From the IMG/VR virus record IMGVR_UViG_3300047476_001402, positions 1 through 64,000 of that record: DNA of 64,000 nucleotides. One strand, given 5' to 3'. Source of the stretch: a virus. The notes under the pieces are model-generated. The model had not been told where the DNA came from. It made no database searches and saw only the letters and a program-made list of their open reading frames with translations. The position numbers were made by a program, and so were the translations under genes. Each line of letters begins with the position of its first letter. Position 1 is the first letter of the stretch. Shown piece by piece: positions 22,684 through 25,245 of this stretch.

Positions 22684-22751
22684 AACAGCAACCTTAACAA
22701 CAATGATCTTTTAAATCAACACGTTAAATGTAATCTGCTAAAGAATGTCAC
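22684..22751 (+). ncRNA. Short array module, no tRNA parts
   Basis: Begins with AACAGCA. Contains inverted TTAAC / GTTAA that could form a small hairpin, but no T-arm or D-arm. Included because it is bounded by the same motif as its neighbours. Confidence 0.3.
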
Positions 22752-22870
22752 ACAGCAACAAATAAAAACTTTTTTCTATTCAAAAAACCCATCCAAGTTC
22801 GACTCTTGGAAGCGTTAACCGGCTGATTGGTAGAGGGCGAAACGGTAAGACATTCGAATATAAGAGTATT
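22752..22870 (+). ncRNA. Y-RNA-like permuted tRNA mimic A
   Basis: Begins ACAGCA. A perfect T-arm (CCAAG, loop TTCGACT, CTTGG) is followed at once by a D-arm-like segment with GATTGGTAGAG, i.e. 3' part before 5' part. The acceptor equivalent (AGCGTT with AACCGGCT) pairs only with a 2-nt bulge. The ends pair: CTATTC upstream with GAATATAAGAG downstream. No protein gene overlaps it. Confidence 0.5.
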
Positions 22871-22974
22871 AACAGCAAAATTATAATATTTTCGCCAAAC
22901 ATTGAAACGAAGTGGTTCGACTCCGCCCGTAATAGCTGACGGTTCAGCGCAAACATACTCTGAAAAAGAATATC
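22871..22974 (+). ncRNA. Y-RNA-like permuted tRNA mimic B
   Basis: Begins AACAGCA. T-arm GTGG, loop TTCGACT, CCGC precedes a D-arm candidate GCTG, loop ACGGTT, CAGC; a competing fold pairs CCGT with ACGG. The ends pair over 7 nt (ATATTTT with AGAATAT). Less regular than C and D. Confidence 0.45.
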
Positions 22975-23094
22975 AACAGCATTATAAAATATATGAGCCC
23001 AATTCTAGGTCGGAGGTTCAAATCCTTCAATTCCCGCAAGGGATTTAGCTCAGGGGTAGAGCAAGAATAATATTAAAAATGATATTCTGAAATT
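22975..23094 (+). ncRNA. Y-RNA-like permuted tRNA mimic C (clearest)
   Basis: Order: ATTCT (23002-23006), variable AGGTC, T-arm GGAGG/TTCAAAT/CCTTC, then AATTCCC, loop GCAA (23036-23039), GGGATTT, then D-arm GCTC/AGGGGTA/GAGC (23048-23062) and AGAAT (23064-23068). ATTCT pairs with AGAAT as an anticodon stem; AATTCCC pairs with GGGATTT (one U-U mismatch) as an acceptor stem capped by a GNRA loop. All tRNA arms are present except an open acceptor end. This is a tRNA fold cut in the anticodon loop, like YrlA-type Y RNAs. Confidence 0.65.
23069..23094 (+). repeat. 26-bp direct repeat, copy 1
   Basis: Perfect 26-bp copy (AATATTAAAAATG...CTGAAATT) at the 3' end of mimic C; second copy at 23460. 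Confidence 0.85.
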
Positions 23095-23104
23095 TTACAA
23101 AAAT

Positions 23105-23467
23105 ATGGGATCACTTTTAGGAAAAATAGCAGAAGAACATAGAGACTTCGAAGAATGGTGTGAGAACAGACAATACCCATTTCCTTCTAGAGAGTTTTGG
23201 AAGCATCAGCCTTATTATGATGAGTATAAACTTCCCGAAAAATTGAAGGATGAGGAAAACCAAAAATCAAGGAAATCGTATAACGAAAAGCGTCGTAATG
23301 ATGAAGGTGATAAAATCGGTTTACTTAATGATAGATTTTTAGGAACTCCTGAAGTGGATTATACATGTGGGTGCGGACACCCTAAAGCGCGATATCTTCC
23401 CGGATTTGTTTTGACAAGTGAATACGGTTGTGCTAAATGTGGAAATGTAGTCGGAGGAGAATATTAA
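23105..23467 (+). CDS. Zinc-binding hypothetical protein, 120 aa
   Basis: N-terminal 75 residues are charged and aromatic; the C-terminal part has YTCGCGHPK and GCAKCGNVV, a four-Cys zinc site. The gene is flanked by the 26-bp repeat and lies inside the RNA array, suggesting insertion. Function unknown. Confidence 0.6.
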   Translation: MGSLLGKIAEEHRDFEEWCENRQYPFPSREFWKHQPYYDEYKLPEKLKDEENQKSRKSYNEKRRNDEGDKIGLLNDRFLGTPEVDYTCGCGHPKARYLPGFVLTSEYGCAKCGNVVGGEY

Positions 23468-23485
23468 AAATGATATTCTGAAATT
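23460..23485 (+). repeat. 26-bp direct repeat, copy 2
   Basis: Identical to 23069-23094, overlapping the stop codon of the zinc-protein gene. Confidence 0.85.
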
Positions 23486-23501
23486 ATTAAAAGAAAATAA
23501 T

Positions 23502-23729
23502 ATGCAACTTAAAGAACTTTTGGCAGAAATTATGTCTGAATTAGACCAACCAATGGGAAATATTGATCTTAATAAGATACAATCTAAGATGTACCTTGTG
23601 GCAGGTCTATTGACCGACGACGATACAAAAGTTCCTGTTGAAGTATTTGACCTCTTTCCCGAGGAGTATAAGAAATCAGCTATAATATTGTATATGAAAA
23701 TGATTGCACAGACACTTGCTGAAGGATAA
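23502..23729 (+). CDS. Hypothetical protein, 75 aa
   Basis: Acidic helical protein (MQLKELLAEIMSELDQ start). Ends 6 nt before the tRNA-like RNA at 23736. Not recognised. Confidence 0.5.
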   Translation: MQLKELLAEIMSELDQPMGNIDLNKIQSKMYLVAGLLTDDDTKVPVEVFDLFPEEYKKSAIILYMKMIAQTLAEG

Positions 23730-23735
23730 TTAAAA

Positions 23736-23902
23736 GCCCTTGTATTCTACAAACGTAGCCATTACGTGAAATGTATTATGCATAATATATTAAAAATGGA
23801 CAACTCTTAAAGGCCGAAACAGAAATACTAGTAGTATGTTAGGATAAAGGAGTTGTATATGACGAGGATGGTAAGCTAGCTCGGACCTAGCCAAGGGCAC
23901 CA
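23736..23902 (+). ncRNA. tRNA-ended structured RNA, insertion type
   Basis: A perfect 7-bp acceptor stem joins GCCCTTG (23736-23742) to CAAGGGC (23892-23898), followed by A and encoded CCA. A perfect T-arm (GCTAG, loop CTCGGAC, CTAGC) precedes it. A small arm CTAC/AAAC/GTAG sits at the D position. In place of an anticodon arm there are about 115 nt with a 7-bp helix (ACAACTC at 23800 with GAGTTGT at 23840). It is a tRNA mimic, an intron-bearing tRNA, or a minimal tmRNA-like RNA. Confidence 0.55.
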
Positions 23903-23914
23903 ATTTTAAAAATA

Positions 23915-24271
23915 ATGAAACCAAAGATTATAGGATATGAAAAAGATGGTAAATTCTATGGAATTGCCACACATCTAGGAGGAGTTTATGTTAGTAGAGC
24001 AGATATTAATATCTATTATGTTAATGATAAGCAACTTTTAAAAGATTTCGAATCGGCAAAACTTTTGGTTCAAGGTAAGGTGTACAGAGAAGGAATGTCA
24101 TTGAAATTGAATAAAGAGGAATTAGAATCGTTTGGGCGGGGTAGACTTTTTATTTCAACTGTAAGAAATGCAAAAGAATTTAAGATAGCGGAGAAATATC
24201 CATCAGATAGCACAAGAACAGTTGCATTAAGAGCACAATTTAAATTGACAACCGAACAAGGAGTGATATAG
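23915..24271 (+). CDS. Hypothetical protein, 118 aa
   Basis: Soluble alpha/beta protein (MKPKIIGYEKDGKFYGIA start). Preceded by an A/T leader following the CCA end of the RNA, as also seen at 31086. Not recognised. Confidence 0.5.
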   Translation: MKPKIIGYEKDGKFYGIATHLGGVYVSRADINIYYVNDKQLLKDFESAKLLVQGKVYREGMSLKLNKEELESFGRGRLFISTVRNAKEFKIAEKYPSDSTRTVALRAQFKLTTEQGVI

Positions 24272-24277
24272 TCGAGT

Positions 24278-24526
24278 ATGACAATAACAACAAAACTAAA
24301 TATTGGCGATACATTTTGGATTCCTTTTAATCTCAATGGTGAAATTGTCGCCCTCGATTTAAAGGTTAAAAAGATTGGAATCACCGATGAAGGAATTTTT
24401 TATTTAGGAGATGCAGGATCATTCCCCTATCCTGAAAGGGCGATCTTCAAAACTGAGCAAGGCGCACTGAAAACTTGTTTCGAAGAGTGGAAAGAAAAAA
24501 AGAAATCTAACTACTACTGTATTTAA
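24278..24526 (+). CDS. Hypothetical protein, 82 aa
   Basis: Beta-rich small protein (NIGDTFWIPFNLNGEIV) resembling other short conserved phage proteins. Last ORF before the second half of the RNA array. Confidence 0.5.
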   Translation: MTITTKLNIGDTFWIPFNLNGEIVALDLKVKKIGITDEGIFYLGDAGSFPYPERAIFKTEQGALKTCFEEWKEKKKSNYYCI

Positions 24527-24574
24527 AAAAAAACAATGAATAGTAAGTAGTGTAAAGTTAGATATAGAGAGATA

Positions 24575-24637
24575 AACAGCAATTAAAAAAACTTTTTATT
24601 GGAAAAAAACAAAAACGTCTCTCGGATAAGGTTCACA
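24575..24637 (+). ncRNA. Short array module, no tRNA parts
   Basis: Begins AACAGCA and is A-rich. No T-arm or D-arm seen. Bounded by the motif only. Confidence 0.25.
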
Positions 24638-24764
24638 TCAGCAAAATAATACAAGACTCTTATTGTTATAAAGCAAGCCGATCTGGTGCAATCCCGGTAA
24701 TTGTGTAAGGCATCTACAAGCTCTAGTGGGCAGGAAAAAGATCCATGAACCTGAAAAAGTCTTT
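24638..24764 (+). ncRNA. Y-RNA-like permuted tRNA mimic E
   Basis: Begins TCAGCA. T-arm-like CTGG, loop TGCAATC, CCGG is followed by TTGTG, a 9-nt loop and TACAA (acceptor-like hairpin), then CTCTAGTGGGCAG resembling a D-arm. The ends pair well: AAGACT near the 5' end with AGTCTT near the 3' end. Confidence 0.45.
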
Positions 24765-24839
24765 GTCAGCATCTTAAACTCTTCTTTCAAAAACATCGAA
24801 ATGTCCAGAAGGCATTTCAAAGACTTGGATAAAATCATC
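24765..24839 (+). ncRNA. Hairpin array module
   Basis: Begins GTCAGCA. Forms a hairpin GAAATG/CC-AGAA-GG/CATTTC; CAAAGACTT also complements the end of module E over 9 nt. No tRNA parts. Confidence 0.35.
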
Positions 24840-24987
24840 AACAGCATATAAACTTCTATGTAAATAATTATCCTAACGGGTGTCCTCGTTCAAGTCGGGG
24901 GTGTGGAGCATATAGAGATAAAAATTCCACATTGGCGGAATGGTAGACGCGATTAAGAAAAAAGATGATGATTTGAATAAAAATTCT
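24840..24987 (+). ncRNA. Y-RNA-like permuted tRNA mimic D
   Basis: Begins AACAGCA. T-arm CCTCG/TTCAAGT/CGGGG (24884-24900) is followed by GTGTGGA (24901-24907), an 18-nt loop, and TCCACAT (24926-24932): a full 7-bp acceptor stem in permuted order. Then TG and a tRNA-Leu-like D-arm GCG/GAATGGTAGA/CGC. Upstream, ATCC-TAAC-GGGT resembles a class II variable arm, and TAATT can pair with GATTA as an anticodon stem. Confidence 0.6.
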
Positions 24988-25245
24988 AACAGCAATAAAT
25001 TATATCACATAACGGCTCTAAGGTACTACAGTCGGGAAACCGATGCCGGGACGGTCTAATAAATGCTCGCTAAGTCGAAAGATATGCGAGAAAGACGGGA
25101 CAAAGGAGGAAAAGCTTAATGCTCCCTTATCTGTCAGCCATACACAATATAAATAGAATTTTGACCATAGTAACATTGTCCTTGTTGCTAGCGGTTTTTG
25201 GCCAAAAACCCGTAAGATTAACATCTTACGGGTTTTTTATTACAC
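24988..25245 (+). ncRNA. Last array module, structured RNA without tRNA arms
   Basis: Begins AACAGCA. Contains stable hairpins: GTCGGG-AA-ACCGAT-type, and CTCGC (25067) with GCGAG (25086) enclosing a GAAA loop. Ends at the terminator at 25204. A TATAAATA box at 25148 lies inside. Nature unknown. Confidence 0.35.
25204..25240 (+). terminator. Intrinsic terminator of the RNA array
   Basis: Stem AAACCCGTAAGA / TCTTACGGGTTT, loop TTAACA, followed by T. An overlapping GGTTTTTGG hairpin precedes it. Confidence 0.85.

What the first reader, a model, noticed from the sequence alone, without database searches (positions are those of the whole stretch)
22684..24994. CAGCA motif at the head of every RNA module
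AACAGCA-like sequences at 22684, 22752, 22871, 22975, 24575, 24638, 24765, 24840 and 24988 divide the array into pieces of 63-148 nt, each with one RNA fold; several modules' ends pair near the motif. It may be a processing site, a Ro60-binding strand, or a recombination point that let modules multiply.
Basis: seen in the sequence. Interest (0 to 1): 0.7.

Follow-up and report, generated by a model that had tools for sequence, protein, structure and literature searches.

The report
Phage Ro60-partner RNAs mimicking tRNA pieces
The repeated CAGCA motif marks a row of small phage RNAs, each closed by its own stem and sitting beside a Ro60-like protein gene, that imitate separate pieces of transfer RNA (and in one case probably of ribosomal RNA), so the phage may be making decoys for host enzymes that attack the translation machinery.

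Summary
All nine CAGCA sites are real, and each lies just inside the 5' strand of a 6-9 bp stem closing one RNA module (9/9 sites, against 15/109 elsewhere in the window; p=1.5e-7). The modules follow a protein with the Ro60 fold (AlphaFold model; Xenopus Ro, Z 22). Related phages have the same tandem arrays: stem, 1-3 nt, CAGCAA, insert, stem, then usually a 4-nt linker resembling GAUA. Twelve of 15 phages with only distantly similar Ro60 genes also carry stem+ACAGCAA modules; cellular Ro60 loci tested do not. The motif is therefore most likely the conserved strand of a Ro60-binding site in Y-like RNAs; binding itself is untested. Inserts mimic tRNA parts: anticodon arms (48 of 121 short modules, 3 expected; 26 of 34 unique ones have U36), circularly permuted tRNA bodies lacking the anticodon arm (35, 0.65 expected), and probably 23S rRNA helices 69-71. 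In the window, M1 mimics the tRNA-Lys(UUU) anticodon arm, M4 and M8 tRNA bodies, and M9 the 23S piece. Phage Y RNAs with tRNA-like domains are known; the shared signature, the anticodon-arm class and the rRNA class appear new. Decoy function is inferred.

The parts
19266..20990 (+). Ro60-like (TROVE fold + vWFA) protein, 574 aa
   Evidence: AF2 pLDDT 86; Foldseek/VIA best hits Xenopus Ro 1yvr/1yvp Z~22, Thermus phage phiLo Ro60 9l5y Z 15, Deinococcus Rsr 2nvo Z 13.7; PHROG 850 'RNA-binding protein'
22676..22736 (+). Module M1: stem AGATTAC/GTAATCT, motif TAACAGCAA; insert is an anticodon-arm mimic TGAT-CTTTTAA-ATCA (tRNA-Lys UUU)
   Evidence: free MFE fold gives basal stem, inner stem and 7-nt loop
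22743..22855 (+). Module M2: stem GAATGTC/GACATTC, motif CACAGCAA; T-arm CCAAG-TTCGACT-CTTGG followed by D-arm-like GATTGGTAGAG
22863..22961 (+). Module M3: stem AGAGTAT/ATACTCT, motif TAACAGCAA; T-arm GTGG-TTCGACT-CCGC and hairpin GCTGA-CGGT-TCAGC
22967..23088 (+). Module M4: stem AGAATATCA/TGATATTCT, motif ACAGCAT; permuted tRNA body T-arm, acceptor (6/7 bp), D-arm GCTC-AGGGGTA-GAGC; weak Rfam YrlA match
   Evidence: (RF02553, 35.6 bits, E 2.2e-5, below cut-off 69)
24567..24623 (+). Module M5: stem GAGAGA/TCTCTC, motif AACAGCAA; hairpin TTTTT-ATTGG-AAAAA, D-loop-like
   Evidence: class assignment by eye
24629..24752 (+). Module M6: stem AGGTTCA/TGAACCT, motif ATCAGCAA; insert not clearly assigned
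24757..24826 (+). Module M7: stem AAGTCTTTG/CAAAGACTT, motif TCAGCAT; insert not assigned
24832..24974 (+). Module M8: stem AAATCATCA/TGATGATTT, motif ACAGCAT; permuted tRNA body (T-arm, 7/7 bp acceptor, D-arm GCG-GAATGGTAGA-CGC), tRNA-Leu-like
   Evidence: tRNA-Leu assignment by eye
24980..25162 (+). Module M9: stem AAAATTCTA/TAGAATTTT, motif ACAGCAA; insert resembles 23S rRNA helices 69-71 (CATAACGGCTCTAAGGTA...GTCGGGAAACCGA)
22684..24994 (+). The nine (N)CAGCA motifs, each 1-3 nt inside the 5' strand of the closing stem: proposed 5' strand of the Ro60-binding internal loop
24753..24756 (+). Example linker between modules (GAAA between M6 and M7; others GCTAAA, GAATATA, GAAAA, GGATA, GGATA, GAATA)
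   Evidence: exactly 4 nt in 107 of about 154 neighbouring pairs across relatives
25204..25238 (+). Terminator-like hairpin CCCGTAAGAT-TAAC-ATCTTACGGG-TTTTTT just after the array
   Evidence: sequence; hairpin shown in the alignments; not listed by the consensus scan
53441..54070 (-). RNA ligase (PF09414): context for tRNA damage and repair, not part of the array

Best explanation
The array encodes a tandem set of Y-like small RNAs that serve as partners of the phage's own Ro60 protein. Each module folds on itself: a sequence-variable 6-9 bp closing stem, an internal loop whose 5' side is the conserved (N)ACAGCAA and whose 3' side is A-rich, and a variable insert. The CAGCA strand next to the closing stem is most likely what Ro60 recognises, which is why it stays constant while stem and insert change. 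The transcript is probably cut in the short single-stranded linkers (GAUA-like) to release single modules. The inserts display separate pieces of the translation machinery: anticodon arms (mostly U36-A37-A38, as in tRNA-Lys UUU), circularly permuted tRNA bodies lacking the anticodon arm, and probably 23S rRNA helices 69-71. Most likely role: Ro60-held decoys or baits that occupy host enzymes acting on tRNA and rRNA, above all the anticodon nucleases used in anti-phage defence. Shown by computation: fold, motif, association with Ro60, tRNA mimicry. Inferred: Ro60 binding, cleavage at the linkers, decoy function.
For: Stem at ACAGCA in 190/426 occurrences in the Ro60 loci, about 8% for permuted hexamers; sense strand 137/280, antisense 1/49, viral loci without Ro60 20/357, cellular loci 7/227. 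Stem pairing tested without using it for selection: 57 linker-defined modules form 7.07 of 8 pairs on average, swapped partners 4.61 (maximum 5.21 in 2000 shuffles), with many compensatory pair types. Arrays found by motif alone sit beside a Ro60 gene. In 12 of 15 phages with distantly similar Ro60 genes, 24 of 42 ACAGCAA near the gene have the stem; all 105 heptamer permutations average 0.7. Ro60 fold. Anticodon arms 36/101 against 2.3 expected, with the excess largest by far at 7-nt loops; 48/121 against 3.0 in the larger set; U36 in 26/34 unique ones. Permuted tRNA bodies 35 against 0.65. Helix-69-like profile hits only 23S 1913-1941, E 0.016, best shuffle E 2.3. In Listeria phage CKA15, noncoding regions within 2 kb upstream of its Ro60-like gene are among its most abundant RNAs (PMC12282133), and an ACAGCA array lies there.
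Against: No binding, expression or RNA-end data for this phage. In CKA15 the top-expressed region, the only one with coordinates in the text, is not the ACAGCA array. M6 and M7 have no assigned mimic, and 83 of 121 short modules fail the strict tRNA-arm patterns. The 23S resemblance is short. Rfam's YrlA model scores far below cut-off. The motif is absent next to cellular Ro60 genes, so a contact by analogy with known Y RNAs cannot be assumed.
Confidence: 0.62

Rival explanations
1. The RNAs are tethers and gates as in the Deinococcus Ro60-Y RNA-PNPase machine: they fix Ro60 to a host nuclease or other tRNA-binding enzyme and steer RNA decay or RNA quality control; the tRNA likeness is the handle that recruits the enzyme.
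For: Known mechanism of cellular Y RNAs (reviewed in PMC8394870; proposed for phage CKA15 in PMC12282133). Compatible with the motif as the Ro60 site.
Against: One or two Y RNAs would do; it does not explain arrays of 5-12 different inserts, anticodon arms centred on U36-A37-A38, or an rRNA piece.
Confidence: 0.25
2. The modules bait tRNA and rRNA modification enzymes (for example TruB and Dus on T- and D-arms, t6A enzymes on U36-A37 anticodon arms, RluD or RlmD on helices 69-71), lowering or redirecting modification of host RNA.
For: YrlA is a substrate of DusA and TruB (PMC8394870); U36-A37 preference; the mimicked sites are also modified sites (own knowledge).
Against: No clear benefit to the phage; the window phage itself carries tRNA-related enzymes and 18 predicted tRNAs.
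Confidence: 0.15
3. CAGCA is a ribonuclease processing signal that cuts the precursor into single RNAs.
For: Tandem arrangement and constant spacing.
Against: The motif lies inside the module, opposite an A-rich strand; a cut there would destroy the module. The linker is the better candidate.
Confidence: 0.08
4. Decayed or split tRNA genes: remnants captured between repeats, with no function of their own.
For: Some inserts are close to real tRNAs, one being a whole tRNA (L034:2935-3050).
Against: Pairing of variable stems is kept by compensatory change, the motif is kept across distant phages, and bodies and anticodon arms occur in separate modules in a regular layout.
Confidence: 0.04
5. CAGCA is a recombination point that let modules multiply.
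For: Number and kind of modules differ widely between relatives.
Against: The motif is too short for homologous exchange on its own and is conserved in lone modules too.
Confidence: 0.04

Closest known systems
Bacterial Y RNAs (YrlA, Rfam RF02553; Rsr/Ro60 partners)
   Same: Encoded beside a Ro60 gene, ends pair in a closing stem, tRNA-like domain in the order T-arm, acceptor hairpin, D-arm
   Different: Rfam score below cut-off; constant (N)ACAGCAA strand not seen beside the cellular TROVE genes tested; head-to-tail arrays with short linkers; additional anticodon-arm and 23S-like inserts
Noncoding RNAs of Listeria phage CKA15 / P100 (PMC12282133)
   Same: Noncoding region beside a Ro60-like gene; the same stem+ACAGCAA modules were found here in P100 and CKA15
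   Different: The authors proposed Y RNAs for highly transcribed regions without describing a motif or tRNA pieces in the passages read; the most abundant region (26,236-26,727) lacks CAGCA
Y RNAs of mycobacteriophages (Chen et al. 2014, cited in PMC12282133; the paper itself was not available)
   Same: Mycobacteriophages Bromden and Loadrie carry the modules directly after their Ro-like gene
   Different: Two or three modules only; whether that paper describes the motif could not be checked
Phage tRNAs that evade anticodon nucleases (PARIS, PrrC, VapC; PMC10264068, PMC11455837)
   Same: Same supposed adversary; tRNA-Lys UUU is a main target
   Different: Those are whole, functional tRNAs; the modules here lack free acceptor ends and split the tRNA into parts
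Circularly permuted tRNA genes of algae and archaea (own knowledge)
   Same: 3' half of the tRNA encoded before the 5' half
   Different: Here the anticodon arm is missing and replaced by the Ro60-site stem, so no working tRNA can be made

Membership tests
Ro60 / Rsr (TROVE + vWFA ring protein) | Ro60 fold over the whole length | tested here: met
   Z about 22 to Xenopus Ro over 409-437 residues, well above the vWFA-only matches at Z about 12
Ro60 / Rsr (TROVE + vWFA ring protein) | Sequence match to Pfam TROVE PF05731 | tested here: not met
   Only DUF7788 passes in the Pfam scan; the relation is visible by structure only
Ro60 / Rsr (TROVE + vWFA ring protein) | vWFA metal-site residues DxSxS, T, D | tested here: met
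   D371, S373, S375, T442 and D473 invariant in 32 sequences
Ro60 / Rsr (TROVE + vWFA ring protein) | Binds Y RNA | not testable with these tools
   Needs protein and RNA
Y RNA, broad sense (Ro60-partner small RNA) | Encoded next to a Ro60 gene | tested here: met
Y RNA, broad sense (Ro60-partner small RNA) | 5' and 3' ends pair into a closing stem | tested here: met
   (independent of selection), for all nine modules of the window
Y RNA, broad sense (Ro60-partner small RNA) | tRNA-like domain, T-arm before D-arm, in at least one module | tested here: met
   (window M4 and M8; 35 modules in all)
Y RNA, broad sense (Ro60-partner small RNA) | Bound by Ro60 in cells | not testable with these tools
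   Needs immunoprecipitation or gel shift
Rfam YrlA RF02553 | Reaches the gathering score (69 bits) | tested here: not met
   Best 35.6 bits for M4
Cellular Y RNA Ro60 site | Shares the ACAGCAA strand | tested here: not met
   0 of 26 ACAGCAA near cellular TROVE genes have the stem; flanks were about 1.5 kb, so distant Y RNA genes could be missed
Functional circularly permuted tRNA gene | Anticodon stem and loop formed once the ends are joined | tested here: not met
   The opening at the anticodon carries the CAGCA loop and an 8-9 bp stem instead

The most novel reading that the evidence does not exclude
Many unrelated phages carry a Ro60-held decoy set: separate small RNAs that each show one part of tRNA or rRNA (anticodon arms of U36-A37 tRNAs, tRNA bodies without anticodon arm, 23S helices 69-71), in order to absorb host enzymes that cut those parts during abortive infection. 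One shared RNA strand, ACAGCAA, docks all of them on Ro60.
Probability: 0.3. Interest if true: 0.92.

Novelty: new variant of a known kind. Interest (0 to 1): 0.78.

Why it matters
It gives phage Y RNAs a simple sequence signature by which they can be found in genomes, including about two hundred modules in the loci fetched here that carry no annotation in the records seen. It suggests a concrete answer to an open question, what bacterial and phage Ro60-Y RNA particles are for: presenting mimics of the translation machinery. The idea is directly testable, because anticodon arms and tRNA bodies are split into separate RNAs that can be removed one at a time. If decoy action is confirmed, it would be an RNA-based counter-defence acting beside phage tRNAs and RNA ligases.

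Tried and rejected
Motif at the tail of the module (my first reading): rejected, since the stem that encloses each insert starts before the motif. Mimicry of the ribosomal GTPase centre: alignments to 23S 1065-1112 turned out to be tRNA D-arms. Megablast of 9 kb around the array against phage records: no match. Profile search of PDB sequences with the Ro60 alignments: no relevant match; fold comparison was needed. Search for tandem closed modules without the motif in distant phages: at background except Listeria P100, where most of the hits came from a different repeat region. Genome-wide scan of cellular contigs with the linker-motif pattern: hits are at the level expected by chance and none is an array. 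RtcB as partner in this phage group: absent in 23 of 23 records, while a PF09414 ligase is present in 14 of 23. The papers that define bacterial Y RNAs (Chen 2014, Wang 2018, Sim and Wolin 2018) are not held, so their published motif could not be compared. The shuffles used for insert classes keep base composition only, and modules from related phages are not independent events.
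Full report
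Setting. The window is the first 64 kb of a 90,383-bp virus record, a tailed phage judging by its genes (ribonucleotide reductase, thymidylate synthase, gp44-like clamp loader). The nearest named relative found is Leptolyngbya phage Lbo-JY46, whose Ro60-like protein is 44% identical. ORF 19266-20990 has no Pfam TROVE match (only DUF7788), but its AlphaFold model (pLDDT 86) matches Xenopus Ro at Z about 22, Ro60 of Thermus phage phiLo at Z 15 and Deinococcus Rsr at Z 13.7. It is a Ro60-fold protein.

The observation. CAGCA is present at all nine sites. Each is 1-3 nt inside the 5' strand of a 6-9 bp stem whose 3' strand lies downstream, beyond the insert. All nine sites meet this, against 15 of 109 other CAGCA in the window (Fisher p 1.5e-7). 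The nine modules are M1 22676-22736, M2 22743-22855, M3 22863-22961, M4 22967-23088, M5 24567-24623, M6 24629-24752, M7 24757-24826, M8 24832-24974 and M9 24980-25162, in two clusters separated by small ORFs. A terminator-like hairpin follows at about 25204-25238. No second array was found in the remaining 26 kb of the record.

Relatives. Scans with the Ro60 protein and with a five-protein alignment gave about 45 IMG/VR loci. In these, ACAGCA is flanked by the closing stem in 190 of 426 cases; the mean over the other permuted hexamers is about 8%, and the few higher ones are register shifts of the same motif. On the sense strand of the Ro60 gene the rate for ACAGCAA is 137/280, on the antisense strand 1/49, in viral loci without Ro60 20/357, and in cellular loci 7/227. 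Neighbouring modules are joined by exactly 4 nt in 107 of about 154 cases; the consensus reads ...CU-GAUA-AG... (my register score favours such edges slightly, so the figure is an upper estimate). A test that does not use pairing for selection took 57 modules defined only by linker and motif: they form 7.07 of 8 pairs, swapped partners 4.61, never above 5.21 in 2000 shuffles, with many different base pairs per position. Arrays found by motif alone have a Ro60 gene in the locus in 9 of 13 cases; three of the remaining four are the same contig as a Ro60 locus or share the module spacing of one.

How wide is it? Phages from other groups whose Ro60-like proteins match at low identity (roughly 22-30%; Listeria, Bacillus, Mycobacterium, Campylobacter, Enterococcus, Fusobacterium, Vibrio, Synechococcus and others) have 24 stem+ACAGCAA modules within 3.5 kb of the gene, in 12 of 15 phages; all 105 permutations of the heptamer average 0.7. 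A few single hits in that list, such as those of Klebsiella and Sinorhizobium phages, may be chance. Cellular TROVE genes in two samples of about 300 genomes each show no such module (0 of 26 motif occurrences), although YrlA-like RNAs occur beside some of them. The strand therefore marks the phage branch of Ro60 partners as far as tested.

What the inserts are. Of 121 short modules, 48 hold a hairpin with the loop pattern of an anticodon arm, against 3.0 in shuffles. An earlier set of 101 gave 36 against 2.3, with 46 against 5.8 at loop size 7 and 10-15 against about 5-6 at sizes 5, 6 and 8-10. After removing T-loops and duplicates, 34 remain, 26 of them with U at position 36 (shuffled 27%); the commonest loops are CUUUUAA (Lys UUU), CUUGUAA (Thr UGU), CUCUUAA (Lys CUU) and CUCGUAA (Thr CGU). 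Long modules hold T-arms in 69 of 108 cases (0.24 expected). In 35 modules the T-arm is followed by an acceptor helix closed by a loop and then a D-arm, with 0.65 expected by shuffling: a tRNA body opened at the anticodon stem, the architecture described for YrlA. In the window, M1 carries a Lys-UUU anticodon arm, M4 and M8 permuted bodies, M2 and M3 T-arms. M4 matches Rfam YrlA weakly (35.6 bits, cut-off 69). Module L034:2935-3050 contains a whole tRNA.

A further insert type, in M9 and in L016, L017, L020 and L022, carries AUAAYGGCNCUAAGGUAG and a hairpin. The best single case (L016) scores 37 against E. coli 23S 1909-1934, shuffles at most 29; a profile of the five hits only 23S 1913-1941 (E 0.016; best of 200 shuffled sequences E 2.3). 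This is helix 69-70, with helix 71 resembling the next hairpin. I rate it as probable, not proven. An apparent second site, the GTPase centre, was a false lead.

Expression in a relative. In Listeria phage CKA15 the Ro60-like protein is found in purified particles, and three noncoding regions within 2 kb upstream of its gene are among the most transcribed in the genome, starting from promoters with TTGAC and TATAMT elements (PMC12282133). An ACAGCA array preceded by a similar promoter-like sequence lies there (record about 25,300-25,610, minus strand). The text gives coordinates only for the most abundant region (26,236-26,727), which is not the array, so expression of the array itself is likely but not shown.

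Mechanism. The constant strand beside a variable stem, in RNAs whose inserts have nothing in common, next to Ro60 genes across very distant phages, is best explained as the docking strand for Ro60. The linker is the natural place for cutting. What the particles do is inference. The mimicked parts are known targets of defence nucleases: PrrC and PARIS cut tRNA-Lys, and at least one bacterial nuclease cuts rRNA at helix 69 (abstract of PMC13189344, a eukaryotic target). The window phage carries an RNA ligase and 18 predicted tRNAs that include Lys CUU but not Lys UUU. [quoted passage not shown] I favour decoys, with recruitment of a nuclease as in the Deinococcus machine as the main rival and baiting of modification enzymes as the third.

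Novelty. Phage Y RNAs and tRNA mimicry by Y RNAs are known. The shared ACAGCAA signature, the arrays with 4-nt linkers, the anticodon-arm class and the probable rRNA class were not found described in the papers I could read; the key 2014 paper was not available, so priority for the motif is uncertain. I file this as a new variant of a known kind.

Noticed in passing
window 49906-51054 (-): PurZ-like 2-aminoadenylosuccinate synthetase (PHROG 1211): the phage may use 2-aminoadenine in its DNA.
   Followed up: no
window 41501-42400 (+): Phage-encoded glutamyl/glutaminyl-tRNA synthetase catalytic domain (PF00749), 300 aa.
   Followed up: no
window 61081-61743 (-): PP-loop ATPase (PF01171), possibly TilS- or TtcA-like tRNA modification enzyme, close to the tRNA cluster that starts at 63450.
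   Followed up: no
window 33513-34472 and 35839-37260 (+): Nucleotidyltransferase-NUDIX protein and nicotinamide phosphoribosyltransferase: probably an NAD salvage pair.
   Followed up: no
window 53441-54070 (-): RNA ligase (PF09414); found in 14 of 23 Ro60-array phage records checked, while RtcB is in none.
   Followed up: partly
window 23066-23096 and 23455-23490 (+): The 3' end of module M4 (AATATTAAAAATGATATTCTGAAATT) is repeated after ORF 23105-23467, as if that ORF and its flank were inserted or duplicated.
   Followed up: no
window 23730-23914 (+): Non-coding stretch between ORFs with structured-looking sequence (GCTAGCTCGGACCTAGCC), no Rfam match; it lies between the two module clusters.
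   Followed up: no
L034:2935-3050: A complete tRNA (Rfam 53 bits) sits inside a Ro60-type module and has G instead of U at position 33; a Listeria P100 module (L050 about 7810-7920) also shows an anticodon-like loop with G33.
   Followed up: partly
L050, L053, L292, L293, L295: Ro60-like genes of Listeria, Bacillus, Campylobacter, Enterococcus and Klebsiella phages lie within or beside tRNA gene clusters.
   Followed up: no
L303 (cellular contig): Several YrlA-like RNAs in a row beside a cellular TROVE gene, without the ACAGCAA strand.
   Followed up: no
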